From positions 1 through 28,755 of the IMG/VR virus record IMGVR_UViG_3300009183_000284: 28,755 nucleotides of DNA. One strand, 5' to 3'. The notes below the pieces were generated by a model, which had not been told where the DNA came from, ran no database searches, and saw nothing but the letters and a program-made list of their open reading frames with translations. Positions 1,541-24,639 of this stretch are shown piece by piece. A program made the translations under genes and the position numbers. How positions within the stretch are numbered: the first letter of the stretch is position 1; every line of letters starts with the position of its first letter. This DNA is from a virus.

Positions 1541-4225
1541 TTAAGAGTTGGGAGTTACACCGGCGGCATTACCTAGCCCTGTTAGTTCATCTCTCCGGTT
1601 TTTTAAAAGGTTGCTAATAGAAGTATCGCCGCTATTTTCTTGAAACTGGTCAAGATGCTCTTTTGGAACGTAGTCATAGATGTGCTGTTCGATTCTGTTT
1701 AAGTCCTCACCATTTTTTGCAGCGTGTATCATCCCGACAAAAGTAAAGCCTTTATACTTTTCATCTAGCGTAGAATTAGGATCTGCTAATCCGTGTACAT
1801 AAGCAAGCTGTTCATGTTCACTTTTCACCCGATCTGCTTTATCTGCATCATATATTCCACCATTTAAACTTGAACCTTCCTCAGTGGATTCTCTTCTCAT
1901 GGGTAAAGGTACAATAACATTTCTTCCGTTTGGCCCTTTCACTGTTTCATACGCTGTGAAGGTAAAAAACTTTTGCGCTCTTTCATACCGACCCAAATAA
2001 AATTCTTCTCTTAAACGTTTATCATAAATTTTGAAGTCTTGTTCACTCATAGACTCCCGAAGCTCTTCAGCCATTAAACCTCGAAGACCTTGTCTTGCAT
2101 GTTCACTTCCCATGTAACGTTGAAAAGCTTTATTTACCCCTCCCGCACTTTCGATCTCACTCGCTTGTCCATTCGCATACATCTGTTTCTTCCACTCTTT
2201 AAAAATCACTCTATATAAATCCGTTTTTATTCTTCCTTGGTGATCAAAGTGCGAACCGCTGTATTTACTTATTACATCTGCTCTAGGCCCATGTTTGTTT
2301 AAGTTAGCTTGATAGTTTCTTAAAGCTTCCCAATCATGTCTACCAGGGTCTGACCATTTAGCTCTACGCTCATCTCCTTTCCCCGATTCTCTTGTGGACT
2401 CACTAGCAATGTCTTGTATGTCCACTCTTGCGACAACCCTATCTAAAGTGCTACCCATTCCACTTGCTGTACTTTCTAAACTAGCCACCATTTCTGTAGC
2501 TGTATTACAAATTGATAGCCAGCTTGTTCTTGCTCGACCTGACAAACTTGCTAGAGATATCAACGCTTTTACATGACGTGCGTTGTAAAAATCATCTTTG
2601 CCATTAATTTTTTTATCAATATCTTTGAGTGCGGCTTTGAATAAATTCCCAAGTAATATGCTATTATCTTTAATTATCAAACCATCTACTGCCGCTTCTA
2701 TTTCTTCTTTTCTTTTATCTCCTTCTTTTCTTACGCTATTACGTAGTAAACGAGAACGGCGAAAATTAGCCTTCAAATTTCCCCCGTGATAGTGCATCAA
2801 ACTTCTAGCTTGTTTAAACGCAGCAGGGTAAATACTTTCATTACTTGCTAATTTATCATCCGCATGTTTCATTCCCGCTTCTCTTAAACTCTTTTCATCC
2901 TTTAGTCGAGTGTCTAAAGCACCTTCTTTTTTTGTATCAATCGGTGTTGACTCAAGAGTTTTTTGGTCTTGTAAAAGTTTCTTGATGGGCTCTACCCCAA
3001 TCCCTGCACTGTATATACCCGGAATCCCAGTAAATACAGGGATGGATAAAAGTCCCTCTTTACTAGAAATGTTGACAAGGTCTAAACTATCTTTAAAAGA
3101 ACCAATTTCAGCCATTGAATGTTTTACAGTCCATGTTCGCATATCTTTAACTAACTCGTCAGGAAGTACGTTATCTCCAAAAAGTCCTTTCCTAGCATCT
3201 GATTGTGTTTTAGTAATATCGTTTCGCACTTTCATCATTACTGAATCTACAAATATATTTTTTAAATTTTTAACTTTGTGAGGGTCGAGGTCTTTTTTTT
3301 GATCTTCAATAAGTTGTGCTGTAGCTTTTTTAATATCCTCTTTCCTTCCTTCAATAGCCCTTTTTAAATCCCCTGACCCTTGTAATTCTTCTAGCCATAA
3401 ACTTACTAAAGATTGTTTGATTCCATCTTCTTTTAGTATGGTTGCCAACTCACTAGCGGAGTATCCTGTTATTCTTTGCATTGCTATTGAGTTATTACTT
3501 TTTAAAAGGTCATACAACTTTTTTATCCCTAGTTCTCCTGAGGATCTAAACATGGATTTAAAGTTTGTATCTCTCACAACATTAGCGTGGATTTTCATTT
3601 GCGCTTCAAAGACACTATCCGCAGTTTTGGTATCCGCTCTAGTTCCGTTTCCAACCATATCAAATAACTCTACGTGACCTTTGCTCCTTAGCTCTTTAGT
3701 AATGCCACCAGAATTAGTTGGGTTAATGTTTTTAGAAATGTACGCTTTTAATGTGCTCACCGATGGCCCACTTGCTAATAAAGACACTAGTCCGGAAACG
3801 AAACGGGAAGGGTCCATGCTTGTTCCGTACTGCGGTTTTTTTGGGCCGTCTAATTTTCCTTCTGGATTTTCAGCTTTATGATTTCTGGTAAAGGTTTTAT
3901 TCTTTGCATCTGCTGAAGCAAAAACCGATTTTACATCTGCTGTAAATCGAGCAATATTTGCAGCACCGGCATGATTATCTCCCGTTATCTCTTTTAGCCA
4001 AGGCTCTAAATGCTTGGCTCTTTTCCCATCACTGTCTGAGTTTAGTAGGTTCTTGATCGCACCTTGTCTACTAACGTTGGCTGTTCTCCAAGCTTCAAAA
4101 GTTTTTTGGTTATATTTATCGGGCATTGCTATTATTTGATTAAGCCTGTTTTTGACCTCAGAAGAGCTATAATTGTCCGAATGTAATGCTCTTACTAACT
4201 GCTCTATTTGGTTTTCATAATTCAT
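1541..4225 (-). CDS. Large basic, mostly helical protein of unknown function (894 aa)
   Basis: No family is recognised. The protein is long, hydrophilic, rich in Lys, Arg, Asp, Glu and Ser, and probably largely helical. It has no clear signal peptide or membrane helix. The N-terminal ~110 residues look like small helical bundles, and the centre (around 290-340 and 490-570) is strongly charged and may form coiled coils. No Walker motif or nuclease motif typical of a terminase was seen, although it lies immediately beside the portal gene where terminase is usual. The ATG at 4225 has GAGG about 13 nt upstream, longer than ideal. It is divergent from the portal gene across an 81-bp gap. It could be a virion or ejected protein, or a cargo gene inserted between terminase and portal, but the sequence does not decide this. 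Confidence 0.6.
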   Translation of the reverse strand: MNYENQIEQLVRALHSDNYSSSEVKNRLNQIIAMPDKYNQKTFEAWRTANVSRQGAIKNLLNSDSDGKRAKHLEPWLKEITGDNHAGAANIARFTADVKSVFASADAKNKTFTRNHKAENPEGKLDGPKKPQYGTSMDPSRFVSGLVSLLASGPSVSTLKAYISKNINPTNSGGITKELRSKGHVELFDMVGNGTRADTKTADSVFEAQMKIHANVVRDTNFKSMFRSSGELGIKKLYDLLKSNNSIAMQRITGYSASELATILKEDGIKQSLVSLWLEELQGSGDLKRAIEGRKEDIKKATAQLIEDQKKDLDPHKVKNLKNIFVDSVMMKVRNDITKTQSDARKGLFGDNVLPDELVKDMRTWTVKHSMAEIGSFKDSLDLVNISSKEGLLSIPVFTGIPGIYSAGIGVEPIKKLLQDQKTLESTPIDTKKEGALDTRLKDEKSLREAGMKHADDKLASNESIYPAAFKQARSLMHYHGGNLKANFRRSRLLRNSVRKEGDKRKEEIEAAVDGLIIKDNSILLGNLFKAALKDIDKKINGKDDFYNARHVKALISLASLSGRARTSWLSICNTATEMVASLESTASGMGSTLDRVVARVDIQDIASESTRESGKGDERRAKWSDPGRHDWEALRNYQANLNKHGPRADVISKYSGSHFDHQGRIKTDLYRVIFKEWKKQMYANGQASEIESAGGVNKAFQRYMGSEHARQGLRGLMAEELRESMSEQDFKIYDKRLREEFYLGRYERAQKFFTFTAYETVKGPNGRNVIVPLPMRRESTEEGSSLNGGIYDADKADRVKSEHEQLAYVHGLADPNSTLDEKYKGFTFVGMIHAAKNGEDLNRIEQHIYDYVPKEHLDQFQENSGDTSISNLLKNRRDELTGLGNAAGVTPNS

Positions 4226-5652: not shown

Positions 5653-7458
5653 ATGGGTAAATTTGAACTTCCAAATTCGATAGAAACAGCTAGTCCCGAT
5701 GTAATTCGGTCATTCATAAGGGACCGTAAAAACTACCAAGCTAAGGAAACCCGTAAGCTTGGTGCATTTCCTATGCCTGCCGAATATATTCGAAACATGG
5801 CTCATACTCTAGGGGAGTCTAGCTCTTCTTTACTGGGCCTAGATGCTAATGACGCAGAAGATCCTAAGGTTGATACAACTCGAATGACCGCACGTTTTGT
5901 AATCACAACGGCATCTAAAGATCGTCATGGTGATATCGTATTGCCGAGAGGTTGCGTATCCCATCTTAAAAACTACACCCGAAATCCCCGTGTATTTTTT
6001 GCCCATAAAACGGACGACCTACCGATCGCCTCCGCTAGGGATCCAGACGGCAATCTTGCTTTAGAGATATATGATGACCGGATTTACTCCACCGCTTATT
6101 TCCATGGAGAAACCCGTGAGTCCGAACTAATCTTCCGATTGATTGCCCGCAAAGAATTACAAGCGTCTTCTATTGGCTTTTTGCCTATTAGGGCAACGTT
6201 TATTGAATCAGAGGATGAAGACCTTATCGACTTAGAGACTGGCGAAGACATTATCGACTTCCGTTCGGACAGTACTAGGTCTATGCCTTGCCTCCGATTC
6301 CTTGAGTGGGATATGATCGAATGGTCTGTAGTCCCTATCCCTGCAAACCAAGACGCTTTAGCTGCCCACCTCTCCCGTGGACATATCGAAGGAGAAAAAA
6401 TATCCCCTTCCGTTCGTAGGGCTTTATCTCATTACATGCCCAAAAAAACAAAAACAGTTGTATCGTTTAATGAGCCTTCTTCTCTCCCTACTAAAGCGGT
6501 TGAAGTTAACCACAAAGACACGAATGTGGAATGGGATGGGCCTGTTCAAAAAGAGAACGCTTCGTTATCGGAATACAAACAAATGACCGCATGGTTTAAT
6601 GGGAAAGACTCCAAAGACAAGTCTTCGTTTAAGCTTCCTCATCACGATCATAAAACCCTCGATACCGTTTGGGAAGGTGTCCGAACCGCAATGGCTGCAC
6701 TCTTAGGGACTCAAGGCGGTATTGAGATTCCAGAATTACAGCGGATTGAGGTTTACAATCATTTAGCAAAACATTATAAAGAATACTATATACCCGCTCC
6801 CGAATATCGTTTATTATATTCTATAGAAGAATTAAAAACTTTATTTCCGGACATTGATTTTAAGGAGCTTGTAACCGTGAATACAGAACAACTAAAATTT
6901 AAAAAAGACTTAGAAGCCCTTGTAGCCTCGCCTACCCAAGGTAAGTCTAAGAAAAAAGAAGACGAAGATGAAGACAAGAAAAAAGAAGTAGACGATGACG
7001 ATGAGTCTGCTAAAAAGGGCGAACCCGAAGATGATGATGACGAAGTTGATGTTAAAGACAAAGCTGCCAATGAAGATGAAGACGACGATAGTGAACAAGA
7101 CGGCAAAAAAGCCAAGTCTGAAGATTCTGATGATGACAAAGAAGATGAAGGCAGTGATGAAGATGAAGACGGTGATGACGACAAAGACCCTGACGAAGAT
7201 ACTGAAGTTGATACAAAAGATGTACTGAAATCTATGTCTGAATTAATGCATTCCATGCATGATTGTTCTACCGCTCACACCAATCTTCTTACCAGTCTTC
7301 ACGACAAGATGGATCATTGCATGAACGCTTTGACTCCAAAAGAAGATGAAAAGCCAGAAGAAGATGAAATGAAAACCATCCTCAGTGCTCTTCTTACTTT
7401 GAAATCAAATCAAGACGCTCTTAACAAGCGTTTATTTGAAGCAACAGGTAGAAGGTAA
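5653..7458 (+). CDS. Prohead protease fused to a conserved middle domain and acidic scaffold-like tail (601 aa)
   Basis: The N-terminal part (about 75-245) is an HK97-type prohead protease (peptidase family U35). It has the FFAHK histidine (H118), the serine in ASSIGF (S173) and the acidic residue in MIEWSVVPIPAN (E223). It should cleave the capsid protein N-terminus during head maturation. Residues 290-380 form a second domain with SSFKLPHHDHK and VYNHLAKHYKE, seen in many fused phage head proteases. Residues 431-520 are an extreme Asp/Glu/Lys low-complexity tract. The last ~75 residues are helical and could act as a scaffold or capsid-binding piece. The protein is about three times longer than a bare protease (~200 aa), and no separate scaffold gene is present. 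It starts 2 nt after the portal stop with GAGG upstream, and its stop overlaps the next start as TAATG. Confidence 0.9.
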   Translation: MGKFELPNSIETASPDVIRSFIRDRKNYQAKETRKLGAFPMPAEYIRNMAHTLGESSSSLLGLDANDAEDPKVDTTRMTARFVITTASKDRHGDIVLPRGCVSHLKNYTRNPRVFFAHKTDDLPIASARDPDGNLALEIYDDRIYSTAYFHGETRESELIFRLIARKELQASSIGFLPIRATFIESEDEDLIDLETGEDIIDFRSDSTRSMPCLRFLEWDMIEWSVVPIPANQDALAAHLSRGHIEGEKISPSVRRALSHYMPKKTKTVVSFNEPSSLPTKAVEVNHKDTNVEWDGPVQKENASLSEYKQMTAWFNGKDSKDKSSFKLPHHDHKTLDTVWEGVRTAMAALLGTQGGIEIPELQRIEVYNHLAKHYKEYYIPAPEYRLLYSIEELKTLFPDIDFKELVTVNTEQLKFKKDLEALVASPTQGKSKKKEDEDEDKKKEVDDDDESAKKGEPEDDDDEVDVKDKAANEDEDDDSEQDGKKAKSEDSDDDKEDEGSDEDEDGDDDKDPDEDTEVDTKDVLKSMSELMHSMHDCSTAHTNLLTSLHDKMDHCMNALTPKEDEKPEEDEMKTILSALLTLKSNQDALNKRLFEATGRR

Positions 7459-12941: not shown

Positions 12942-13385
12942 ATGGCTGAGATTTCGAGAGCTTTGGGATTAGGAAGTAGTTTTGAACATGACGGTAAAAC
13001 GTACACATGTTCCCCGTGGACATACAAAATCCAAGGTGAGTTTGAAAGGTATTTAGAAGATCACGCAGTTCGCATAGCAAAACGTATGCGTCAGTATTTA
13101 ACAGCAGAAGAGTATTCTGACCTTATTGCTAAGACTCAAAAAGACATTGCAGAAGGTTACTATGCATTTGGATCCCCGCCTTGTATGCGAGCCATGCAGA
13201 CGTTGACCCACTTTAAGAAAATCCTTTTTCTTTGTCTTACTCCAAACCATCCTGAGATCGAAATCAACATTGTTGATGAATTGGTACAGAGCCGTTTGGA
13301 AGAGATGATGAATAAGGTTGGGGAAGCAAATAACGACCCAAACCCGAATGGTCCGGAGGCAACTCAGAACCAGGCCGCCGGATAA
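12942..13385 (+). CDS. Tail assembly chaperone, short form (147 aa)
   Basis: It corresponds by position and size to lambda gpG. It should bind the tape measure protein and help recruit tube subunits, and is not kept in the virion. The N-terminus (ALGLGSSFEHDGKTYTCSPW) and the helical middle fit short chaperones seen before tape measure genes. The final residues after 134 are Asn/Pro/Gln-rich, as expected for a dispensable tail past the slip site. AGGAG lies upstream of the ATG. The slip site at 13337-13343 lets some ribosomes continue into the -1 frame. Confidence 0.8.
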   Translation: MAEISRALGLGSSFEHDGKTYTCSPWTYKIQGEFERYLEDHAVRIAKRMRQYLTAEEYSDLIAKTQKDIAEGYYAFGSPPCMRAMQTLTHFKKILFLCLTPNHPEIEINIVDELVQSRLEEMMNKVGEANNDPNPNGPEATQNQAAG

Positions 13386-13672
13386 CTGTAGCAGGTATTT
13401 TTTCCGCTTTAGTTAAAGAGCCTTTCAATCTTAGCATGGAAGAGATTGGTTTATTAACTCCTTATCAGATTAAGAACGTTTTCTTTAGACCAAAAGAAGC
13501 GGACGAACCTATTGGGCAATTGCAAAGCGAAAAAGAAATCTTTTGGAAGGTTCATAGGGACTGGAAAAGTTTATCGGAAGAAGAGACACAAGCATTATGG
13601 ACTAAAGGTCAAGCCGATAATCAAAAGTTCATTGATGAAGCAATTAAGAAACAAAACGAAAAACAGGGGTAA
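12942..13672 (+). CDS. Tail assembly chaperone, frameshifted long form (about 243 aa)
   Basis: This is the lambda gpGT-like product. Ribosomes read codons from 12942 to 13343 (134 residues), slip back one base on CCCAAAC, and continue from 13343 to the stop at 13672 (109 residues). The -1 frame is open from 13334 and encodes a coherent sequence before any ATG (RRITVAGIFSALVKEPFNLS), followed by MEEIGLLTPYQIKNVFF and a helical, charged end. This resembles the T domain of other phages, with its TP-Q-x-x motif. The ATG at 13436 has no good ribosome site, so separate initiation is unlikely. The tape measure gene starts 5 nt after the stop. Confidence 0.8.
13337..13382 (+). promoter_or_regulatory. 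Programmed -1 ribosomal frameshift signal
   Basis: CCCAAAC (13337-13343) fits the X-XXY-YYZ slippery heptamer and is in register, since the zero-frame codons are CCA AAC. After an 8-nt spacer there is a stem TCCGG (13352-13356) with CCGGA (13378-13382). It continues past one A-G mismatch into GGC (13358-13360) with GCC (13374-13376), with a 13-nt loop. Spacing and layout are textbook for -1 frameshifting. Confidence 0.85.
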
Positions 13673-13677
13673 TTGTC

Positions 13678-16600
13678 ATGGCAAGTCAAGGTGACGGACA
13701 CAAGAACCCCAAACTTTCCCAAGTTCCTTATACAGGACAGGAAGCTGTCCGAAAGATATTTGAGAACTTTTCTCAGATGTCCGCTTCTCTTTCCCGCTTT
13801 AGTGTTCAGCTAGATGCTATTCAAGAGTCTGCCAAAACCATTGGCATCGAGTTTTCCCACCTCGCATTTATAATGCATTCCGCTAGGTCACACTTTAGTA
13901 AACCTAGCGGATCTTCATCTCCTCACCGCATGGATCGTCAATCAGATCACGATCACTTTAACCAATTCGCTTTCCGTGAACTTGGTAAAATCCGTATCAA
14001 GCAACAAATCGCAAAAGAAACAGGAACGTCAGATTCCACGAAAGACGATGCTCAGCGCCTTAAAGATCACGAACAGTTTTTACGTGACAAAGCGGAGATG
14101 ACGAAGAACTATTACGAAAAAATAAAAACCGCAAAAACAACTGCGGGTACTGCCGAGTTTGCAGAAGAAGAAAAACGTCGTGCTGAAGACAAAGCCTCAC
14201 ATGAAAAATATCTTGCTGACAAAACAAAACTAACACAAGACTATCACAATGCGGTCAAGGCAAAGAAAGCTACCCCCGGCACACCTGAGAACACAGCGGA
14301 ACAAGCTCGCTTAAAAGATGAAGAGAAGGATCATTTAGCTTACCTTGTTAAAAAAGCTGAGATGACCAAAGCCTATTACGAAAAAATAAAGACCGCTAAA
14401 AATACAATTGGAACGACAGAAAACACAGCGGAACAATCTCGTTTAAAAGACGAAGAAAAAGATCATTTAGCTTACCTTGTTAAAAAAGCGGCAATGACTA
14501 AAGACTATTACGAAAAAATAAAGACCGCTAAAAACACAATTGGAACAGTAGAAAACGCTGAAGAACAAAAGCATCGTAATGAAGATAATAAAGCCCATTT
14601 AGAATACCTTGCCCAAAAATCTAAATTAACAAAAGAATATCATGAAAACATAAAGTTAAAAAAGAGTACTCCCGGCACTCCCGAAAACGATAGTGAAAAA
14701 GATCGTTTAAAAGACGAAGAAAAATCTCAATTAGAATACCTTGCTAATAAGGCAGAAATATCTAAAAACTATTATGAAAAAATAAAAAACGCTAAAAAAA
14801 CCGTTGGGACTGCCGAATTTGCGGAAGAGGAAGCACGTCGTGCTGAAGACAAAGTTGCACATGAAAAATATCTTACGGACAAATCCCAATTAACAAAAGA
14901 GTATCACGCAAGCGTAAAGTTGAAAAAGGCAACCCCCGGTACTCCCGAAAACACTTCTGAAAAAGCCCGCATAGCTGAGGGGGAAAAAGCCCATTTAGAA
15001 TACCTCAATAAAAAAGCTGCCGACACCCAAAAGTATTATGCCGATGCCAAAGCTGCCAAAGCCGCTAGTTTACTAGACCCTACTAGCGACGCTTCTAAAA
15101 CCGCTGCTTCAGACCAAGCGGCTTCTTTAGCCTTGTACACTGCATGGCTTCAAAAAAAGAAGCAACACTCGGAAGAATTTTATGCTGGTGAAACAGCACG
15201 AAAGAAAAAAGAAAGCCTGGTTATTGATTTAGGTACTGGCAATACAAAACAAGAAAACGATGATCTCGAAAAGATTGCTCCGTACCTTGCTTTTTTGCAG
15301 CTAAAAGTAAACAAGGCAAAAACATTTTACGACCTACAAAAAAAAGCCAGAGAATTACAAACAAAGACTGAACGAGACGAGCGTAGAGCAAAGCAAGCTC
15401 CTCTTGCAAAACCGTACCAAGACCGAAAAAACGCTGCTAAAGATGCTGGTGATACGCACACGATGATTGACGAATTTGGGGAAGATCGCATTGCCCCCTA
15501 CGTTGATTTTTTATTCGCTAAAGAAGAAGAATTAAGCGCCCATTTAAGACGTATGCAAGGTATTAAAAAAGGTGGTTTTGCAGAAGATGTAAAACATACC
15601 GGTGCTGGTATCAAGAAGGATAACGATGATAGTGATTGGAAACCAAGAGAACGGATGGCAGAAAAAGAACGAGAGGCTTTAGGAGATACCCTTGGTGTAT
15701 CTGCTTCTTACTCGCAGCCTTTACAAGAGTACATGTCTTACTTAGGTTTAAAAGAATCTGTTTTATCCGCACACTTAACTGCAATGGAAAGTATTAGAAA
15801 CAAAGCTAAGACCCCTGAGCAACTGGAGCGTATCGAGCAAAAAAAGAAAACCAAAGAAGAAAACAAAATTAAAGATGCGGATCCTAATTATAAAAAGTCT
15901 GATGATAAAGATCGAATTGAAGAAGAAAAATCTTATTACGTAAAGTTTATTGAAGACTTACAAACTTTTTATGACAAGAAATATTCCGTTACGATGCTGG
16001 GTGAAGAACGAATGGATGGGCTTTGGTCTTCAATAAAGTCTAAAAGAAAATCCGGTAAAAAAGACGTAGATGCCATTATCAATCCTGACCCCAAAAATCC
16101 TTTAGCCCCAGAAGATAATAAGGTAGGTAAGAAAAAAAAGGGATCAAAGAAAGATAAGCAAGAATTTACTGAGGCTGTCAAACAATCTGATATTTCTGAG
16201 AAATATATCATAGTGGTTGATACCGAAACTGCATCTAAAAGTGGTACTAAGGTGGGCACAGATGAGTATTTTAGATCCGCTGAAATCATACAAGTTGCAG
16301 CTAGTGTCATTGATAAAGCTACGGGTAACGTTGTTAAAAGTCTAAATATTTTTGTGGATAAGCCAGATACTCACTCTCTTGCCGAAAATGATAAGTTTGA
16401 TAATCTTCGTAATGCGTATAACGCTGCCCCTAAGGTTAGTAAAGATGAAGCTGCTACTATCTTAAGTAGTTTTCTTGATGAATTTGAAGGTAAAGAGGGT
16501 GGAATGGTTGGGGTGGCTAAAAGCTCATTTGATCAAAAACTGGGTAAAAATGCAGGCCATGAAGATGAAACTGATCCTTTAAAAAATCAGCTTAAGAGAA

Positions 16601-19600
16601 TACTTCCTAGTACCGAACAAGAACGAAATGATTCTAGTGTTACTAAAACAGTAGATTTAGCTTCTTTATTAAAACAGTTAATTACTTTTCAAAAGAAAGC
16701 TAATGTCCTTCTGGGAAAAGACCCTCACAGCGAAATACAAGACGCTTTAAACGAAGTTCACGCAAAACGATTGGATGATGCTGAGTTTCCAGAAGATGCC
16801 AATGTTGCTAGAGCTAATGCGGCGAAAGATAAACGAAACGACTATGAAGGCAAGACCGACTTTACTATTGAGGTTCTTGCAGAACATTTTGGTGTTGAGT
16901 CCGTAGCTCATGATGCTAGCGGTGACGTAGCAGCAGAAGGGCTGGTCTTTCTTAAAATTTTAGAACAGATGCAAGCTCTTCCCGAGTCATTAGATACTAG
17001 AGGGCCTAAAACTAAAGCGGAAGACAATGCAAAAATAGATTCTAATGTTGGTGCTCTTGCTGAGTTTATGAAGGGTATTAGGGAAAATATTGGTGGTATT
17101 AAATCGCAATCAACACAAAACTTTAAAGAACGTGTTTCGGGAGATGATATTTTTGTTTCTGCTATGAGTGTGTTAGAAAGTATTTTAGCTCCTTTAGTTG
17201 GATCGTTTGCTAAATTTAAACCCGAAGATGTAAAAGATTATTATCCAAACAGTATAGAGGCACGTAATAAAGATGCTATTGAAGAGGGGCAGGAGGAGAA
17301 TTTTGAAGACAATGTTTCAAGTTTAATTGATAGCTTAGGAAAACAATTAGGAATTAGTATTCCAAAACTTTTTAAAGTTATTTCTATTCATGCTGGTGAG
17401 TCAATAGAGGGGACAGGAAAAAATAAAGGTGCTTCTTATTCGGGTGCAGTCCACCGTATAAAAGAAAAAGGTAGCGATCAATTTTCGCAGGGTTTAGAGC
17501 TTGCCGTTCCTCCTAGTGCTTTTGAAAAAGGCAATGAAGCACAACTAGCACAAGTCCGAGCTTCCCTGTTAGAGGAAGTACTTCACGGACTACTGAATAA
17601 AACAGGCTCTCCTGTGAGTCTTGAAGGCGGTCAAAAAGAACTATTACAAGCAATTGTTACGTCTGGTGAAGGCGTTGATGATAATGCGTTTTCGGATACG
17701 ACTACAGATTCTAATGGTAAAAAAGTTAAAAAGGGTTATTTATCCGACCCGCAAGAATTGATTATGGCGGCAGTCATTAAGATGTTTTCCGGAGCCAATA
17801 TACCGGACCTTATTAAAGCTAAAGCCCCTAAAGATAAAAACGTTCAATTTGCTTTATCCACTATTAATGTTACCAAGCCTCTTCAAGCTTTTATAACCAG
17901 AGCATTTAAAAGCCTCAAAGTCCCCGTCATTTCTGCTGCCGTGTTAGGCAGTTTAATGGTAGGCATGGCTGGGGGTGCTGAAAGTAAACCTCTTGAGAGT
18001 CACATTCAAGACTCAAGGGTAGAAGCTCAAGTAGAAAAAGACCGTGTTAGAGATGTAATAGAGAAACAGGAAGAAGAGAGAGAAGTCGCTGGATTACCTC
18101 CGAGAGTAGAACCACAATCAAAGCCTATTTCAACTCCCGCTCAAGTCGAAGCAGCCAAGAAAGCAGCGGCTGCAAAACATTCTGCACAAATCCAAGCAGT
18201 AAGAAACCAGCAGCAACAAGCAGCCGCCCTTGCAGCCTTCAATGCACCTTCAATGCCCCTGACAGATACACAGGCTCCCGCAGGAGGTTTGGGTGGTGGA
18301 GCGGCTGCAAACCAATCTGGTTCTGTTGTTTTTGGTAACACCCCAACTACACCCCCGCCAAATGTAAATAAAAACGTAGCTCTTGCCGACTTACCTTTTG
18401 CCCTTGTCGACAGTGTTACTGACGGCGATACCGTAAAGTTAACGATTAAATTTGCCGACGGTTCTACCCAACAACTTAGTCTTCGTATGTACGGCTACGA
18501 TGCCCCTGAGTCTAAGGGCGACAAGTGGCAAGAACAGCCCGGAGCTAAAGCAGCAAAAGCGGCGCTTGCTAAATTACTTACCAACAAAAAATTAAAGTTA
18601 AAGCTTAAAGGGGTTTCCCATAATCGTAGAGTTGGCGATTTAATTGACGCTGATTCGGGTCAGTCGATAAGTCAGCAGATGGTTGCTGAAGGTCACGGCA
18701 TGCCGTACATGGTAGAGCCTCAAGATGAAGCTGCCTTTGCCGCTGCTAGAAATCAAGCAGCAAAAGATAAAAAAGGACTACACGGTCAAAAGGGCGCAGA
18801 GCCAATAGCCCCCGAAACTTGGAGAAGCCCCCGGTTAAGCCCAGAGTTTCGTCAACATCATATTGAACAATTTAATGCAGCTAACGGTATAGTCCCGACC
18901 CCTGAAGTAGTCCCTCCCCCAATTCCAATAGTCCCGCCTGTTGTCCCAATAGTTCCACCGGAAATACCCGCTGAAGTACCGCCCATAGTTCCTGTAGTTC
19001 CACCCGTAGTTCCAATAGTACCACCAGTAGTTCCAGATATACCTGTAGTAGCACCATCAGCCGTGCCTCCTGTAGTTCCACCTTCGGCTGGTCCTACTGA
19101 AGGCGGTAATTCTTCCATACCGTTTCTTGCCAAATTAATAGCTTCTATTTTTGCGCTTAGTGCGAGTGGAGCAGCATTAGCGGGATTCTACGATGTAGGT
19201 GGTACGAAAAAACAAGACAAGATAAAAGAAAAAATTGAGCTTGCGAATAAAAAACTTAACCGGTTAAGAAAAGATTTTAATGAATTATTAAGTATTAAAA
19301 AAATTAAGGTCGGAAATAAAGAAGACACGACACAAGTGTCTGGGTTGATTCTTACTACCTTAGACGACATGATCAAAGAGGCTACTAGCAAGCTAGGTTT
19401 AGAAAAAGAATTACAAGCCAATATTGACGGTAGTGACACTAGCCCTGGTATTAAAACGGCTAGTACTTATTTAAACAGTTTGATACAAAGAAAAGAAAAA
19501 ACACTCAACAGTATTAATACCCCCGTAGTAAACCCTACAGCTACACCGAAACCAAAAAAGAAACCCGCAGCTACAACACCCGCAGCTAAGCCAGCGGCTG

Positions 19601-22600
19601 CATCTGGGCCAAAACCAGTTTCTCCTTTAGCTTTTAGTTTTCCAACTTCCACATCATCGATAGTTCCACCCGAAGCACCCGCAGCGTCTGGCACAGGAAG
19701 CGGTTCTTCCCCACAAGCTATTTCGGTTACGTGTGGAGCTTGTGGAGCGACGTACAAACTACCTATTTCGGCAGCAGGGAAAAAGGTAAAATGCCCACGC
19801 TGTAGTGCTGCAATAGAAGCATCTACTGGTAAGCCCGTTACCCCAGCTACCCCCGCTTCTACAGCAGGGTCATCGCCCGTTAATCCAGCAGCAGCAGGGT
19901 CTACAGCGGGACCTGTTCCAACAGCGGGAGCTACGACGGAACCCGTAGTAGGAACACCTCCAATAGTCACAGCGGGGTCAACTCCCGTAACCGCACCGGT
20001 AAATACAGCAGAACCCGATTTTGCAACGAAAAGAATAGATTCAAAGCTATTGGAATCTTCTACAGATGACGAGTTGGTTGCATTGCTTGATGGGATTAAA
20101 AAATACGCAAGTGAAATATTAAAAAATGGAAAAGCAACGGCTAACCCTTTGTTCTTAAAGCTTGCCCGTGCTAATGGGAATCTTATAATAGCTCAGTTAA
20201 ATGAAACTCGTAGAGCAGCTAAAGCCGCTTCTGCCGCCGCTGCTGCTAGTGCCAGTGCTACAAAAGCAGACGCTGATAAAGAACCAGAAGTAACTAAAGA
20301 TGCTACTACTAAAGACGCTGCTAAAACTAAAGAAGCTAGTGCCGAAGATAAAGACAAGTTTGAGATTAAGAATCCTACAGTCCCTGCAACAGATAAGTTT
20401 AAAGAGCAAATCCCCCTTACTCTTGGCGAAGCGATTGCCGAAACATGGAATCGTCTTTCGGGTCAAGCCTATAAAGAACCTGTTCAAGAAGACGCTAAAG
20501 AACCTGGTGATGAAAAAGGCTTTTTCCAAAAACATGTTGAGGGTGTAACAACCAAGAAGGTTGAAAAAGCCCATGACGATGCTAAAGACGCAGAAGGGTT
20601 TTCAAAAAATGTTAATGTAAAAGATGAAGAGGATCTTATCCTTTTTGGAAAAGCATTAACCAAAGCTGATGATTCTGTTAATACTGCCATTGATTCGATT
20701 ACAAATCACATAGGTATCTTTGGTGATTCTTTAGACCCCGAAGAACTAGAGTTGTGGAATAAAGAATTACAAGACCTAGAAATCAAAGCTCAGCTTTTAC
20801 GAGATGCTTTAGTTGCTACAGCTAAAGCATTAGAAAAATTTGCAGTTGCTGTAGACAGCGATGATGACGAAGAAGAAACACCCGTTCCACAAAGAGGAGT
20901 ACCAAACAAAGGTTCTACTCCCCCGCCAAAGAAAAAGCCAGCACCGGTTAATCCCGCATCGACAGGAGCACCGGCAAGTCCGACTGCAAACCCTGCTCCA
21001 AAAGGAGGATCAAAACCAACCCCTCGCTATGGACACGATTCGAGTGTTAAAGGTAGTGGTATTTTAGGTGACGATGAGGCTTTTGATTATGCTGCCGATG
21101 AGGCACAAGCTCAAGTCAATAGAAGTCAAGCGTGGGACGATGAAAACCATGCTATTAAGTTAGAGGAAGTAGAAGCAGAACTTGCAGGGGGAAGTGCCCC
21201 AACTAAAAATCCCACAAAAATCGGTGATGATGCTGAGGAAATACCCGATGAGTACATTGAGCAAAATGCTATTGAAGAGCCAGAAGAAGTTGCAGCAGAA
21301 AATATAGCTAATGACGATTATGAACTTGACAGTGACAATTACGAAACTATAAATGCAGATGATTCTTCTGATCTTGACTCGCCCGTTTTTTCTACATCTT
21401 CAGCAACTCCCACTACGTCTAAGCCGAGTTCCACTTCGGTTTCTAAACCTCCTGTTGTAAATGCACCAGAAGAAATTGCAACTCCCGAATTATCAGACCC
21501 CGATTTTTCGGAAGCGTTAGAAGACGAAAATGACCAGGGTCCGCAAGAAGGTTTAGAGATGGGTTCGGAGTGGGATCTAAATACAAATGATTTTGAAGAA
21601 AACCCTTTTGAGTTAGATTTTGACGACTACGATGTAAATAAAGATGACAAAAGAGTGGAAGATGAAGCTGCTGCGCAGAAAGAAGTAGAAGCCAATTATA
21701 CACCAAATCAAAAAAAGTTTTGGGAAGATATAGCTAAGGAAAAAGAAGAGGAGGAGGAAAGGGCAGGGTTGTCGTCAGGTTTAAGTACTGGTGATAGAAC
21801 GAAAGAATGGCTAAGAAATAAATTGATTAACCAATTACTAGGAGAAAGAATAAGGGATGGACTTGAGGGAGAAGATGCGGAAGACAGAAAAGATGAAATC
21901 AGAGAAAGGCTTTCTAAACAATATGATGTTTTAGATGATAATTATGATCTTGCATCGTCGCCACCTTTAGAATTAGACAAAGACCTCGATAAACCAAAAG
22001 ATAGTCTTGATATTTATAAGAGCATGGGCGGTACTATTGGGTACGCTTCAGACGGAACTTCCGTTGAAAAGCCCAGTATTTTTGGTGGCATCTTTAACAG
22101 CATTTTCGGGAAGGCAAAACCAAAAAAGAAATGGAAGCCCCCTACTAATTACCATCCGACCAAAAACAATTGGGACACAGACACCAACTTTGAAAACAAA
22201 TATCGTTCTGGTGGCGGCGATATTGAAAAGAAGGGGTTCTTTGGCAATATATTCGATAACATTTTTGGTGAAGCTAAGCCTAAGAAAAAATGGAAGCCTA
22301 AACCAAACAAAGAGATGGTTAAGAATAATTGGAATACAGATGATACATTTGAAAACAGTTACCGTGCTCTTGGTGGCGATGTAAGCAATAAAAAAGACAA
22401 TAGTAAATCCTTAAGCGACTTGATTTTCAAACCTAGGGGTTCTGATACTGTCCCTGCAATGACCCCTGAGGGTCAACCTTACATGTTAGAAAAGGGCGAA
22501 CGTGTTATTAAACGTTCTGAGTCTGAAAAGAACAAAGACCTTTTAGATAACATCAATGACGGCAAGATTAAAAAACCTCCTGTTTACGCTGCAAGTGGCA

Positions 22601-24639
22601 CAACCGCTGGTGGTAGTAAAGGTGGCTCTTCCAAAGGTGGCTCAAGCGGTTCGTCTAAAGGCGGTTCTTCCAAAGGTGGTTCTGGGGGTGGTACTCCTCC
22701 TCCAGCAACTAGACCTACCTCAATGGGTAGTTCTTCTGGGGATCCTTTAGCTCCCCTCGGAGCATGGGTTAAAGATTTTATTGCAAATTCTAGGGTTGGA
22801 GTTATTGGTGGATCCTTCATGGCTTTGGGTAAAGCCGTTCAAGGAGCCATGTATTCCCTTGGCAATTTTGTTAAAGGTGCTAGTCCCGATACGTTTTCAA
22901 CCCTACAAGGCTCTATCGCTTTATTAACCGGAAGCATTGGCATTGGTTTAATACCCGTGTTCTTAAGAGCTTCTTCTATTATTCAAGGTTGGGCAAAAGA
23001 CATTCAGAACGGCACAGGAGTTATGGGTGGTTTAGTAACAGGAGTTACCAAATTTATTGACAGCATTGATCAAGGGACTCTTGAATTTTTAGTAGGGGTT
23101 GGACTTTTTGTTGCTGGCCTTACCATGTTTGCCCCAGTCCTTGGAATTGTAATTCCAATTATCACAGGATTAGCAGCGGGCTTCTCTTTACTTTCAATGC
23201 CACTGGTAGCGTTTGGAGTTTTAGTTGTAGCCATCTTAGATAAGGCTGGATTATTAGGACCCGCTTTAAACATGTTAGTGAGTGGTGTTTCTTTTGTAGT
23301 TTCTGCTTTAGCTACGGGAGTTGGAATTATTGTTTCTGTCGTTGGAACTTTGCTAGGTGCTGTTACGTCTTTCGTCGGGTTTTTTGTAGGCATTGGTGCT
23401 TCGATTGGTGGTTATATTCTCGGTCTTTTCTCACCATTAGCTCCATTTTTTAATATGTTAGGACAAGTTTTATTTGGTCTTGTTGGAGTTATTGGTGCTG
23501 CCATCGGAATATGGGCTATGTTTGGTGGAACGGTTATGGCAGTTATTGGATTTTTCTCGGGTTTAGTGGGTTCTGTTGTAGCTCTCTTTGGGGCGGTTGC
23601 AGGGTTCTTTACAACCGTAGGCTCGTTAAGTGGATTGTTTACATTGCTTTATACATGGTGTGCAGGGTTAGTTACCTCCTTTGCTGCTGCTGTTGCATCG
23701 ACATGGACCTATGTTGCGAATATGGCAAAGGCCGCTATTGCTGTTATTGCAGCTAATCCTATGCTTGCAGCGTTTGCGTTAGCCTTAGGTGCTGGTATTG
23801 TTGCTATAGGATTATGGGAAAAGGCTGCAATAAAAGCTGCCGAAGCTAAAAGCCAAGGCGATAAAAATTCACGTGAAACAAGTACTGAGAAAAAGTATGC
23901 CGAAGGCATTGCAGATACAGGCGGTAAAACTAAAGAAGGTAGGGTTAACGCTTTAGAAACGGAAGCTGCGAAACAACGTAAAGTAGCTTTAAAATCTAAA
24001 AATGACGCTAACGATTTAGAGTATGGTAAAAACGGCGTGAAGATGGATAAAAAAGCCGCTAAGTCTATGAGAGAAGGAACGGTTCAAGAAGAAGGCAGAA
24101 AGTTAAACGCTTTAGAAAACCAACTCCTTGTTGAACAAGATCCTAATCAAGCCAAGGTTAGAAATCAAGCTGTTACAGATCGAGACAACGGAGTTACTGC
24201 GGAACAAGCTTCTGCTCGGGATAACCCCAAGGGTATAGATACCGGTCTTGGATTTAAACTTCCACCCATGCCAGATTTTAAAGACCTCAAGCTTCCTAAG
24301 TTTGATTTCAAATTACCGAAATTTGAACTTCCCGGACAAAAGAAAAAGACTCCCGAAGAAGAAGCGGAAGCTGCAAAAAAGAAAAAGGCAGATGACATAG
24401 CATCGGCTAAACAAGGTGTAGCGGCTTCGATGGGATCTATGAAATCCCAATCCTCGTTTTCGTCCGTGGAAGAAGCATACAAGAAAATTCAAGTGTCAGC
24501 GTTAGGCGATGACCCTATGACTGTAGAACTCAAAAAGATACAGGAACAAAGTCTTGCAAGAATGTTAATAGAACTACAAAAACTTAATGGTACTAACAAA
24601 GTTATTGCTGAAAAGAAACCCGAAGGTGTAGGCGCATAA
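13678..24639 (+). CDS. Giant tape measure protein with embedded nuclease domains (3653 aa)
   Basis: By position after the chaperone pair and by its makeup this is the tape measure protein, which sets tail length and leaves the virion ahead of the DNA. Order of parts by residue: N-terminal helices 1-120; eight 44-residue repeats 123-474; degenerate helical repeats to ~800; DEDDh exonuclease 843-1100; possible zincin-like domain ~1226-1372; hydrophobic helix ~1415-1433; SNase domain ~1568-1703; Pro/Val tract 1744-1802; hydrophobic helix ~1814-1836; coiled coil ~1844-1945; zinc ribbon 2019-2042; Ala/Pro and acidic linkers; two 53-residue repeats 2800-2905; GSDTVPAM motif near 2921, common in tape measure proteins; Gly/Ser/Lys linker 2972-3005; many hydrophobic helices 3035-3380; charged C-terminus with LPKF repeats. 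Typical tape measures are 700-2000 residues. At ~0.15 nm per residue the upper bound on tail length would be about 0.5 micrometre. No peptidoglycan hydrolase was recognised. Confidence 0.9.
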   Translation: MASQGDGHKNPKLSQVPYTGQEAVRKIFENFSQMSASLSRFSVQLDAIQESAKTIGIEFSHLAFIMHSARSHFSKPSGSSSPHRMDRQSDHDHFNQFAFRELGKIRIKQQIAKETGTSDSTKDDAQRLKDHEQFLRDKAEMTKNYYEKIKTAKTTAGTAEFAEEEKRRAEDKASHEKYLADKTKLTQDYHNAVKAKKATPGTPENTAEQARLKDEEKDHLAYLVKKAEMTKAYYEKIKTAKNTIGTTENTAEQSRLKDEEKDHLAYLVKKAAMTKDYYEKIKTAKNTIGTVENAEEQKHRNEDNKAHLEYLAQKSKLTKEYHENIKLKKSTPGTPENDSEKDRLKDEEKSQLEYLANKAEISKNYYEKIKNAKKTVGTAEFAEEEARRAEDKVAHEKYLTDKSQLTKEYHASVKLKKATPGTPENTSEKARIAEGEKAHLEYLNKKAADTQKYYADAKAAKAASLLDPTSDASKTAASDQAASLALYTAWLQKKKQHSEEFYAGETARKKKESLVIDLGTGNTKQENDDLEKIAPYLAFLQLKVNKAKTFYDLQKKARELQTKTERDERRAKQAPLAKPYQDRKNAAKDAGDTHTMIDEFGEDRIAPYVDFLFAKEEELSAHLRRMQGIKKGGFAEDVKHTGAGIKKDNDDSDWKPRERMAEKEREALGDTLGVSASYSQPLQEYMSYLGLKESVLSAHLTAMESIRNKAKTPEQLERIEQKKKTKEENKIKDADPNYKKSDDKDRIEEEKSYYVKFIEDLQTFYDKKYSVTMLGEERMDGLWSSIKSKRKSGKKDVDAIINPDPKNPLAPEDNKVGKKKKGSKKDKQEFTEAVKQSDISEKYIIVVDTETASKSGTKVGTDEYFRSAEIIQVAASVIDKATGNVVKSLNIFVDKPDTHSLAENDKFDNLRNAYNAAPKVSKDEAATILSSFLDEFEGKEGGMVGVAKSSFDQKLGKNAGHEDETDPLKNQLKRILPSTEQERNDSSVTKTVDLASLLKQLITFQKKANVLLGKDPHSEIQDALNEVHAKRLDDAEFPEDANVARANAAKDKRNDYEGKTDFTIEVLAEHFGVESVAHDASGDVAAEGLVFLKILEQMQALPESLDTRGPKTKAEDNAKIDSNVGALAEFMKGIRENIGGIKSQSTQNFKERVSGDDIFVSAMSVLESILAPLVGSFAKFKPEDVKDYYPNSIEARNKDAIEEGQEENFEDNVSSLIDSLGKQLGISIPKLFKVISIHAGESIEGTGKNKGASYSGAVHRIKEKGSDQFSQGLELAVPPSAFEKGNEAQLAQVRASLLEEVLHGLLNKTGSPVSLEGGQKELLQAIVTSGEGVDDNAFSDTTTDSNGKKVKKGYLSDPQELIMAAVIKMFSGANIPDLIKAKAPKDKNVQFALSTINVTKPLQAFITRAFKSLKVPVISAAVLGSLMVGMAGGAESKPLESHIQDSRVEAQVEKDRVRDVIEKQEEEREVAGLPPRVEPQSKPISTPAQVEAAKKAAAAKHSAQIQAVRNQQQQAAALAAFNAPSMPLTDTQAPAGGLGGGAAANQSGSVVFGNTPTTPPPNVNKNVALADLPFALVDSVTDGDTVKLTIKFADGSTQQLSLRMYGYDAPESKGDKWQEQPGAKAAKAALAKLLTNKKLKLKLKGVSHNRRVGDLIDADSGQSISQQMVAEGHGMPYMVEPQDEAAFAAARNQAAKDKKGLHGQKGAEPIAPETWRSPRLSPEFRQHHIEQFNAANGIVPTPEVVPPPIPIVPPVVPIVPPEIPAEVPPIVPVVPPVVPIVPPVVPDIPVVAPSAVPPVVPPSAGPTEGGNSSIPFLAKLIASIFALSASGAALAGFYDVGGTKKQDKIKEKIELANKKLNRLRKDFNELLSIKKIKVGNKEDTTQVSGLILTTLDDMIKEATSKLGLEKELQANIDGSDTSPGIKTASTYLNSLIQRKEKTLNSINTPVVNPTATPKPKKKPAATTPAAKPAAASGPKPVSPLAFSFPTSTSSIVPPEAPAASGTGSGSSPQAISVTCGACGATYKLPISAAGKKVKCPRCSAAIEASTGKPVTPATPASTAGSSPVNPAAAGSTAGPVPTAGATTEPVVGTPPIVTAGSTPVTAPVNTAEPDFATKRIDSKLLESSTDDELVALLDGIKKYASEILKNGKATANPLFLKLARANGNLIIAQLNETRRAAKAASAAAAASASATKADADKEPEVTKDATTKDAAKTKEASAEDKDKFEIKNPTVPATDKFKEQIPLTLGEAIAETWNRLSGQAYKEPVQEDAKEPGDEKGFFQKHVEGVTTKKVEKAHDDAKDAEGFSKNVNVKDEEDLILFGKALTKADDSVNTAIDSITNHIGIFGDSLDPEELELWNKELQDLEIKAQLLRDALVATAKALEKFAVAVDSDDDEEETPVPQRGVPNKGSTPPPKKKPAPVNPASTGAPASPTANPAPKGGSKPTPRYGHDSSVKGSGILGDDEAFDYAADEAQAQVNRSQAWDDENHAIKLEEVEAELAGGSAPTKNPTKIGDDAEEIPDEYIEQNAIEEPEEVAAENIANDDYELDSDNYETINADDSSDLDSPVFSTSSATPTTSKPSSTSVSKPPVVNAPEEIATPELSDPDFSEALEDENDQGPQEGLEMGSEWDLNTNDFEENPFELDFDDYDVNKDDKRVEDEAAAQKEVEANYTPNQKKFWEDIAKEKEEEEERAGLSSGLSTGDRTKEWLRNKLINQLLGERIRDGLEGEDAEDRKDEIRERLSKQYDVLDDNYDLASSPPLELDKDLDKPKDSLDIYKSMGGTIGYASDGTSVEKPSIFGGIFNSIFGKAKPKKKWKPPTNYHPTKNNWDTDTNFENKYRSGGGDIEKKGFFGNIFDNIFGEAKPKKKWKPKPNKEMVKNNWNTDDTFENSYRALGGDVSNKKDNSKSLSDLIFKPRGSDTVPAMTPEGQPYMLEKGERVIKRSESEKNKDLLDNINDGKIKKPPVYAASGTTAGGSKGGSSKGGSSGSSKGGSSKGGSGGGTPPPATRPTSMGSSSGDPLAPLGAWVKDFIANSRVGVIGGSFMALGKAVQGAMYSLGNFVKGASPDTFSTLQGSIALLTGSIGIGLIPVFLRASSIIQGWAKDIQNGTGVMGGLVTGVTKFIDSIDQGTLEFLVGVGLFVAGLTMFAPVLGIVIPIITGLAAGFSLLSMPLVAFGVLVVAILDKAGLLGPALNMLVSGVSFVVSALATGVGIIVSVVGTLLGAVTSFVGFFVGIGASIGGYILGLFSPLAPFFNMLGQVLFGLVGVIGAAIGIWAMFGGTVMAVIGFFSGLVGSVVALFGAVAGFFTTVGSLSGLFTLLYTWCAGLVTSFAAAVASTWTYVANMAKAAIAVIAANPMLAAFALALGAGIVAIGLWEKAAIKAAEAKSQGDKNSRETSTEKKYAEGIADTGGKTKEGRVNALETEAAKQRKVALKSKNDANDLEYGKNGVKMDKKAAKSMREGTVQEEGRKLNALENQLLVEQDPNQAKVRNQAVTDRDNGVTAEQASARDNPKGIDTGLGFKLPPMPDFKDLKLPKFDFKLPKFELPGQKKKTPEEEAEAAKKKKADDIASAKQGVAASMGSMKSQSSFSSVEEAYKKIQVSALGDDPMTVELKKIQEQSLARMLIELQKLNGTNKVIAEKKPEGVGA
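14044..15099 (+). repeat. Eight tandem 132-bp (44-residue) coding repeats
   Basis: Units begin at residues 123, 167, 211, 255, 299, 343, 387 and 431 with no insertions or deletions. The consensus has H-L-x-Y-L-x-x-K-A, then TK-x-YYEKIK, then a GT-x-EN turn. Units 3 and 4 are almost identical in DNA. Unit 6 resembles unit 1 and unit 7 resembles unit 2, suggesting block duplication. The 44-residue length equals four 11-residue turns, which would suit a helical rod, although the G-T/P turn may break each helix. More degenerate copies follow to about residue 770. Confidence 0.9.
16204..16977 (+). other. DEDDh 3'-5' exonuclease domain inside the tape measure protein
   Basis: Residues 843-1100 match the DnaQ-like exonuclease pattern. 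Exo I is VVDTE (D848, E850) with EIIQVAASVID following. Exo II is SSFDQKL (D952). Exo III is HDASGD (H1078, D1083) in a helix ending in LKILEQM. All five catalytic residues are present, so the domain should be active on single-stranded or frayed DNA or RNA ends. It is in frame with the surrounding tape measure sequence. Confidence 0.85.
17353..17793 (+). other. Possible degenerate zincin-like (metallopeptidase) domain in the tape measure protein
   Basis: Around residues 1226-1372 the layout recalls zincins. There is a strand (LELAVPPSAF), then a helix SLLEEVLHGLL that resembles L-L-H-E-x-x-H with the first His replaced by Glu (E1299, E1300, H1303), then a helix after SDPQEL (E1360) that would supply the third ligand. 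The missing first His argues for an inactive domain or for chance. Low confidence. Confidence 0.3.
18379..18786 (+). other. Staphylococcal-nuclease-type (thermonuclease) domain in the tape measure protein
   Basis: Residues ~1568-1703 contain TDGDTVKL (D1582, D1584, T1585), then R1603 in LRMYGYDAPES with D1608 and E1611, and NRRVGDL with R1650, which matches the second active-site arginine. These correspond to D19, D21, T22, R35, D40, E43 and R87 of staphylococcal nuclease. The later AEGHGMPY and KKGLHG stretches fit the C-terminal helix region. An active, calcium-dependent endonuclease or exonuclease is expected. Confidence 0.88.
18907..19083 (+). repeat. Pro/Val-rich repeat tract in the tape measure protein
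   Basis: Residues 1744-1802 repeat short PPVVPIV-type units at protein and DNA level (gttccacc-like motifs). It probably forms an extended rod or flexible linker between the SNase domain and the following hydrophobic helix. Confidence 0.8.
19726..19815 (+). other. MJ0042-type zinc ribbon in the tape measure protein
   Basis: C2019-x2-C2022 and C2039-x2-C2042 flank YKLPISAAGKKVK, matching the small zinc ribbon often seen in Planctomycetota and Myxococcota proteins. It is bounded by Ala/Pro/Thr-rich linkers, like a stand-alone module. A role in binding nucleic acid or protein is possible. Confidence 0.75.
22075..22392 (+). repeat. Two 53-residue tandem repeats in the tape measure protein
   Basis: Residues 2800-2852 and 2853-2905 share IFG-x-IF-x-x-IFG, AKPKKKWKP, KNNW-x-TD and FEN-x-YR with a GGD end. 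The hydrophobic IFG segment followed by a strongly basic KPKKKWK patch may be a membrane- or DNA-binding unit. It lies just before the GSDTVPAM motif. Confidence 0.85.

What the first reader, a model, noticed from the sequence alone, without database searches (positions are those of the whole stretch)
13678..24639. Giant tape measure protein that carries two nuclease domains, a zinc ribbon and possibly a zincin fold
A 3653-residue tape measure with a complete DEDDh exonuclease (D848, E850, D952, H1078, D1083) and a complete SNase domain (D1582, D1584, R1603, D1608, E1611, R1650) is not a standard tape measure plan. Tape measures are ejected with the DNA, so the phage could deliver nucleases into the periplasm or cytoplasm at entry. 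They could attack host DNA or RNA, clear competing phages, or prepare the genome. Domain motifs are seen directly. Delivery and targets are inference.
Basis: partly seen in the sequence, partly recalled or inferred. Interest (0 to 1): 0.92.

Follow-up and report, generated by a model that had tools for sequence, protein, structure and literature searches.

The report
Nuclease-carrying giant phage tape measure
A family of uncultured phages builds DNA- and RNA-cutting enzyme domains into the long "ruler" protein inside its tail, a protein that normally goes into the host with the viral DNA, so these phages may inject a multi-tool enzyme at the first moment of infection.

Summary
Window 13678-24639 is one uninterrupted 3653-aa gene, and a second viral contig carries the same ORF, so it is not an assembly join. 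It is a tape measure protein (TMP): conserved -1 frameshift (CCCAAAC) G/GT-like chaperone genes lie directly upstream in all seven phages examined, and its hydrophobic C-terminus matches a TMP PHROG. The SNase domain passes Pfam's cutoff (5e-9) with all six named catalytic residues conserved. The DEDDh domain escapes sequence profiles, but AlphaFold (pLDDT 80) plus Foldseek return DEDDh exonucleases. Six TMPs at 21-31% identity share ten invariant columns, including D848, E850, H1078 and D1083. Every phage of the family whose sequence reaches the region has the DEDDh or its start, even those with about 1,310-1,330-aa TMPs; three long TMPs add SNase. The "zincin" is degenerate here (EEVLH) but a relative has HESIH; its fold remains unproven. 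The MJ0042 zinc ribbon is real. Best reading: the TMP is a virion-carried multi-enzyme ("polyvalent") effector, with DEDDh as its core enzyme. Ejection, activity and targets are inference. TMPs with peptidoglycan hydrolases, and a TMP-related endonuclease effector in a contractile injection system, are known. I found no report of DEDDh or SNase in a phage TMP.

The parts
13678..24639 (+). tape measure protein gene, 3653 aa, carrying enzyme domains
   Evidence: Continuous ORF; same ORF in a second contig; C-terminal region hits phrog_1068 'tail length tape measure protein' E 5e-4; directly downstream of G/GT-like frameshift genes.
12942..13672 (+). tail assembly chaperone pair (lambda G/GT-like): ORF 12942-13385 continued by -1 frameshift into the frame open 13334-13672; slippery heptamer CCCAAAC at 13337
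   Evidence: Heptamer in the correct phase within the overlap; the same CCCAAAC in the same place in six relatives.
13678..13902 (+). conserved N-terminal segment of the TMP family (residues 1-75, PKLSQVPYTGxEAV)
   Evidence: Alignment A6, 7 TMPs, 31-65% identity to the window.
14290..14952 (+). tandem ~44-aa (132-nt) lysine/glutamate-rich repeats in the N-terminal half of the TMP
   Evidence: Tandem Repeats Finder, 132-nt period; sequence.
16189..17001 (+). DEDDh 3'-5' exonuclease domain (residues 838-1108; D848, E850, D952, H1078, D1083)
   Evidence: AlphaFold pLDDT 80; Foldseek hits 3'hExo/ERI1, CRN-4, TREX2, ExoI, Orn and viral DEDDh proteins; active-site columns invariant in 6 TMPs.
17245..17889 (+). 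zincin-like region, degenerate (residues 1190-1404; EEVLH at 1299 where relative L042 has HESIH)
   Evidence: Alignment A3; L042 region weakly hits Peptidase_M76, E 0.067; AlphaFold model of the window region pLDDT 52, inconclusive.
17914..17970 (+). single hydrophobic segment after the zincin-like region (residues 1413-1431), present in L041 and L042 too
   Evidence: Kyte-Doolittle scan; flanking charges.
18367..18855 (+). staphylococcal-nuclease (SNase) domain (residues 1564-1726; D1582, D1584, R1603, D1608, E1611, R1650)
   Evidence: Pfam PF00565 E 5e-9; phrog_452 endonuclease 2.5e-11; profile vs PDB thermonuclease 1.2e-14; all six residues invariant in 3 TMPs.
19123..19179 (+). single hydrophobic segment after the SNase (residues 1816-1834), present in L041 and L042 too
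   Evidence: Kyte-Doolittle scan.
19723..19821 (+). MJ0042-type zinc ribbon (residues 2016-2048, CxxC at 2019 and 2039)
   Evidence: TIGR02098 24.8 bits vs cutoff 20.9 on the segment, 15.4 on the whole protein; Pfam Zn_ribbon_4/5 below cutoff.
22909..23817 (+). C-terminal hydrophobic tape-measure core (residues about 3078-3380)
   Evidence: Multiple hydrophobic segments; phrog_1068 TMP match.
24445..24570 (+). conserved C-terminal motif of the TMP family (SSVEEAYKKIQVSALGDDP)
   Evidence: Alignment A5, 40-80% identity over 5 TMPs.

Best explanation
This is the tail tape measure protein of a siphovirus-like phage family, turned into a virion-borne multi-enzyme effector. A conserved N-terminus and a conserved hydrophobic C-terminal core do the tape-measure work of tail assembly, DNA conduit and membrane insertion. 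Between them is a DEDDh 3'-5' exonuclease present in every relative that could be examined. In the longer versions a zincin-like module, a hydrophobic segment, an SNase and a second hydrophobic segment follow. Shown here by sequence and fold: one protein, TMP identity, two nuclease folds, conserved catalytic residues. Inferred: at infection the protein leaves with the DNA and the nuclease modules reach the cell envelope and/or cytoplasm. There they would act before any phage gene is expressed, most likely against host defence or host nucleic acids (the exonuclease on RNA, ssDNA ends or signalling oligonucleotides; the SNase, if it needs calcium like staphylococcal nuclease, on nucleic acid on the periplasmic side).
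For: ORF continuity and a second contig. TMP identity from the conserved G/GT-type frameshift upstream in 7 phages and phrog_1068. DEDDh fold by AlphaFold and Foldseek with active-site columns invariant at 21-31% identity. SNase by Pfam, PHROG and PDB profile with 6/6 catalytic residues conserved in three TMPs. DEDDh module more conserved (52-72%) than its flanks (30-42%) between L035 and L037. Precedents: polyvalent injected proteins (PMC5512222); a TMP-related endonuclease effector of a contractile injection system (PMC11126660); TMP peptidoglycan hydrolase motif (PMC1796659); lambda TMP labelled near ManZ at the inner membrane during injection (PMC13190303).
Against: No virion proteomics, ejection data or activity data exist. 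A folded ~270-aa domain must be housed in or beside a narrow tail tube. Exonuclease and SNase near the phage's own DNA would be a hazard unless restrained. L041 has Glu where the second Asp of DEDDh is expected, so some copies may be weakened. Between the window and L041 the DEDDh region is not better conserved than its surroundings.
Confidence: 0.6

Rival explanations
1. The nuclease domains act in the producing cell, not the next host: the TMP is made early enough or in enough excess that its DEDDh/SNase modules degrade host nucleic acid, or they are removed from the TMP by proteolysis during tail assembly.
For: Tape measures of several phages are proteolytically processed during assembly (general knowledge); a zincin-like module sits beside the nucleases and zincins are proposed to process polyvalent proteins (PMC5512222).
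Against: The TMP lies in the structural block right after the tail chaperone genes, which is usually expressed late; the nearest HExxH protease motif is absent in two of the three long TMPs.
Confidence: 0.17
2. The nucleases serve the phage's own DNA during ejection (trimming the leading end, releasing the last stretch, or handling broken ends), i.e. a structural/entry function rather than an attack on the host.
For: The TMP is close to the entering DNA (lambda TMP at the inner membrane, PMC13190303); EndA-type nucleases are proposed to aid DNA passage, as discussed for Tme (PMC11126660). The DEDDh is in every member that reaches the region.
Against: Most siphophages need no such enzyme (general knowledge); an SNase acting on the entering genome would be harmful; SNase is absent from the short TMPs.
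Confidence: 0.13
3. The domains are passive length modules or relics: captured folds that add mass to the TMP without enzymatic use.
For: TMP length varies from about 1,310 to 3653 aa among phages with capsid proteins 81-91% identical to the window's; the zincin motif is lacking in two of three; L041 lacks one DEDDh acidic residue.
Against: Four of the five DEDDh catalytic residues are among the ten invariant columns, and all six SNase residues are kept at about 30% identity; relics would lose these first.
Confidence: 0.08

Closest known systems
Phage-type polyvalent proteins (Iyer et al. 2017, PMC5512222)
   Same: Large multi-domain phage proteins predicted to be injected with DNA, combining unrelated enzyme domains, often with a zincin-like peptidase thought to process them.
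   Different: The main text of that survey contains no mention of tape measure proteins, SNase or DEDD exonucleases; here the carrier is the tail ruler, and the zincin motif is intact in only one of three members.
Tme, the tapemeasure-related endonuclease effector of Streptomyces davawensis contractile injection systems (PMC11126660)
   Same: A TMP-related protein with hydrophobic segments and coiled coils that carries a nuclease domain and is loaded in a phage-tail-like particle.
   Different: Tme has one C-terminal EndA-type (H-N-N) endonuclease in a bacterial injection system; here there are internal DEDDh and SNase domains in a genome-delivering phage.
Tape measure proteins with peptidoglycan hydrolase motifs (mycobacteriophage TM4, PMC1796659; enterococcal phages, PMC10194240)
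   Same: An enzyme domain embedded in a tape measure protein and used at entry.
   Different: Those enzymes cut the cell wall on the way in; these domains have folds that act on nucleic acid.
DEDDh exonucleases (3'hExo/ERI1, CRN-4, TREX2, ExoI, oligoribonuclease)
   Same: Fold and D-E-D-H-D active-site pattern.
   Different: No match above a family cutoff by sequence; a large insertion lies between Exo II and Exo III; embedded in a tail protein.
Staphylococcal nuclease family (PF00565)
   Same: Fold and all six catalytic positions examined.
   Different: Other phage SNases that resemble L042's are small stand-alone genes in the three cases checked (about 190-240 aa), not part of a tail protein.

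Membership tests
Tail tape measure protein | Large ORF directly after tail assembly chaperone genes with a -1 programmed frameshift | tested here: met
   CCCAAAC heptamer in the G/GT overlap, in correct phase, in 7/7 phages, ending just before the TMP.
Tail tape measure protein | Hydrophobic C-terminal region and similarity to known TMPs | tested here: met
   phrog_1068 E 5e-4 over residues 325-536 of the C-terminal 712; hydrophobic segments at 3078-3380. The similarity is weak.
Tail tape measure protein | Present in the virion and sets tail length | not testable with these tools
   Needs EM and mass spectrometry.
DEDDh exonuclease | RNase H-like DEDD fold | tested here: met
   AlphaFold pLDDT 80, pTM 0.78; the top Foldseek PDB hits are nearly all DEDDh exonucleases, probability 1.00, best E 1.6e-5, with modest TM-scores of 0.4-0.5.
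DEDDh exonuclease | DxE, FD and HxxxxD motifs | tested here: met
   D848, E850, D952, H1078, D1083 present; DxE and HxxxxD invariant in six TMPs.
DEDDh exonuclease | 3'-5' exonuclease activity | not testable with these tools
   Needs an assay.
Staphylococcal nuclease (PF00565) | Profile score above the curated cutoff and catalytic D, D, R, D, E, R | tested here: met
   37 bits vs 21; L042 52.8 bits, L041 31.3 bits; six residues invariant.
Zincin metallopeptidase | HExxH zinc-binding motif | tested here: not met
   Window EEVLH at residue 1299, L041 EEAFIH; only L042 has HESIH.
Zincin metallopeptidase | Zincin fold | tested here: inconclusive
   AlphaFold pLDDT 52 with 3 sequences; L042 weak Peptidase_M76 match, E 0.067.
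Phage polyvalent protein | Multiple unrelated enzymatic domains in one phage protein | tested here: inconclusive
   Two nuclease folds are solid; a third, proteolytic activity is doubtful here.
Phage polyvalent protein | Delivered into the host with phage DNA | not testable with these tools
   Follows only from general TMP biology.

The most novel reading that the evidence does not exclude
Phage tape measure proteins can be a delivery chassis for enzymes that act inside the host before gene expression. In this family a DEDDh exonuclease is a core part of the ruler, and an SNase bracketed by two membrane segments is held at the inner membrane on the periplasmic side, so one polypeptide would work on both sides of the membrane against host defence or competing DNA.
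Probability: 0.3. Interest if true: 0.88.

Novelty: new variant of a known kind. Interest (0 to 1): 0.72.

Why it matters
If the ruler of the tail is also an enzyme carrier, then the first protein to reach the cell can act on nucleic acids before any phage gene is read. That is the moment when defences such as SNIPE or restriction systems act. It would make TMPs a place to look for early anti-defence enzymes. It would also link phage tails to the nuclease effectors of contractile injection systems, and it raises a structural question of how a folded nuclease is stored in a tail.

Tried and rejected
Assembly artefact: rejected, since a second contig has the same ORF. Chance motif match for DEDDh: rejected by fold and column conservation. 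Sequence-only proof of DEDDh: failed. Pfam RNase_T E 0.16, PDB phmmer and hmmsearch not significant, NCBIfam weak (PRK09145 3'-5' exonuclease 0.002, far below cutoff). Zincin fold by AlphaFold: low confidence, so no Foldseek was run on it. Distant TMP relatives: scans with the gene after the portal, MCP, TMP N-terminus and TMP C-terminus all returned the same small set of phages; no phage in the INPHARED set matched the window's DEDDh-to-SNase-start region or the L042 TMP C-terminus. Phage SNases found elsewhere: the three inspected are stand-alone genes. Host identification: no close MCP relative in 84,980 species genomes; the phage ribonucleotide reductase gave only one 50% match, in a contig of a Thermoplasmata MAG, which is not informative. 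Membrane topology by flanking charge: the first segment is consistent in three TMPs, the second is not, so the topology stays a guess.

Full report
WHAT IS THERE. Window 13678-24639 is a single open frame of 3653 codons. The window is itself an IMG/VR virus record of 28,755 bp. A second record, IMGVR_UViG_3300027759_000077 (70,945 bp), matches it over 20,804 bases with 4 mismatches and no gaps and contains the same 3653-aa ORF. All residue numbers in the finding are correct.

IT IS A TAPE MEASURE PROTEIN. The gene follows portal (PF04860), major capsid (PF05065) and head-completion genes in order. Directly upstream, ORF 12942-13385 overlaps a -1 frame open from 13334 to 13672, with a CCCAAAC slippery heptamer at 13337 in the right phase. 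The same heptamer sits in the same place in six relatives. This is the lambda G/GT arrangement that precedes the tape measure gene (established knowledge). The C-terminal 712 residues hit phrog_1068, tail length tape measure protein, at 5e-4, over a stretch rich in hydrophobic segments. A 'SDTVPAM...GERVI' segment at 2922 resembles a motif I recall from other TMPs (from memory, not tested).

THE FAMILY. Scans with the gene after the portal and with the capsid protein found about 20 related contigs each, with capsid proteins 81-91% identical to the window. Scans with the TMP ends added no new phage. Complete TMPs were read from L041 (3134 aa), L042 (2594 aa), L035 (1327 aa) and L037 (1307 aa), and partial ones from L008, L029, L030 and L034. 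Phages with closely similar capsid proteins thus have TMPs from 1307 to 3653 aa. The ends are conserved and the middle is modular.

DEDDh DOMAIN. No profile search passes a cutoff. D952 is Asp or close to an Asp in most and Glu in L041. AlphaFold gives pLDDT 80 and pTM 0.78. Foldseek's best PDB matches are 3'hExo, CRN-4, TREX2, ERI2, ExoI and oligoribonuclease, probability 1.00, best E 1.6e-5. TM-scores are modest (0.4-0.5), as expected with the insertion between Exo II and Exo III. The best viral match is a protein named DEDDh. L008 is cut off by its contig end after the DxE motif, and L034 shows both DxE and HxxxxD. The domain, or its start where the contig ends, is therefore present in every TMP of the family that reaches the region. 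Between L035 and L037 it is more conserved (52-72%) than its flanks (30-42%), though not between the window and L041.

SNase DOMAIN. Pfam SNase 5e-9, PHROG endonuclease 2.5e-11. L042 and L041 also pass the Pfam cutoff. In the short TMPs I see no SNase in the sequence (L035, L037), and no Pfam or PHROG hit.

OTHER MODULES. Between DEDDh and SNase lies a region that in L042 has HESIH and in the window EEVLH, so it is at best a degenerate zincin here; the structure model is too weak to judge. A single hydrophobic segment follows the zincin-like region and another follows the SNase, in all three long TMPs. Flanking charges suggest the side before the first segment is cytoplasmic, which would put the SNase on the periplasmic side, but the second segment gives no clear signal. 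The zinc ribbon (residues 2016-2048) is an MJ0042 type by NCBIfam on the segment; I did not see it in L041 or L042.

MECHANISM. Shown: one polypeptide, TMP position, two nuclease folds with conserved active sites. From established knowledge: siphophage TMPs leave the tail with the DNA and contact the inner membrane; the lambda TMP was labelled there during injection (PMC13190303). Inferred: the enzyme domains travel with it and act in the host early. I put 0.6 on this reading. Rivals are action in the producing cell or removal at assembly (0.17), handling of the phage's own DNA (0.13) and inert relics (0.08).

COMPARISON WITH WHAT IS KNOWN. Peptidoglycan hydrolase motifs inside TMPs are known (PMC1796659, PMC10194240). 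A TMP-related endonuclease effector, Tme, is loaded by Streptomyces contractile injection systems and has EndA-type activity (PMC11126660). Injected multi-enzyme 'polyvalent' phage proteins with zincin processing are a described class, but the main text of that survey mentions no tape measure, SNase or DEDD domain (PMC5512222). My literature searches found no paper describing DEDDh or SNase domains in a phage TMP (judged from titles, abstracts and the passages read); the library holds only open-licence papers and supplements were not searched. The gene, at 10,962 bp, exceeds the 9-kbp TMP genes of Gordonia phages called among the largest (PMC4919401). I call it a new variant of a known kind.

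LIMITS. The family has few members, the host is unknown, the zincin is unresolved, and no experiment exists. All functional statements beyond fold and active-site conservation are inference.

Noticed in passing
window 12942-13672: Conserved CCCAAAC -1 frameshift site joining two tail chaperone ORFs, identical heptamer in seven related phages.
   Followed up: yes
window 14290-14952: 132-nt (44-aa) tandem repeats in the TMP N-terminal region; copies up to 91% alike, so repeat number could vary between phages and change TMP length.
   Followed up: no
window 1 and contig IMGVR_UViG_3300027759_000077 position 70945: By coordinates, the window's first base corresponds to the last base of the longer contig (the 5653-7458 gene lies at the same offset from both ends, L007), so both contigs stop at the same place: a possible physical genome end or an assembly break at a repeat.
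   Followed up: no
L004:1522-3534 (-): The phage encodes a class II (B12-dependent) ribonucleotide reductase (Pfam RNR_Alpha, lgC and RNR-II insertion domain); the only close relative found is in a contig of a Thermoplasmata MAG.
   Followed up: partly
window 1541-4225 (-): 894-aa ORF on the strand opposite to the structural genes, with no Pfam match at E 0.01.
   Followed up: no
L010, L013, L016, L026 (ORF after the portal; window 5653-7458): The homologue of the window's 601-aa gene varies from about 605 to 924 codons (stop to stop) among relatives, so it also seems to carry variable insertions.
   Followed up: no
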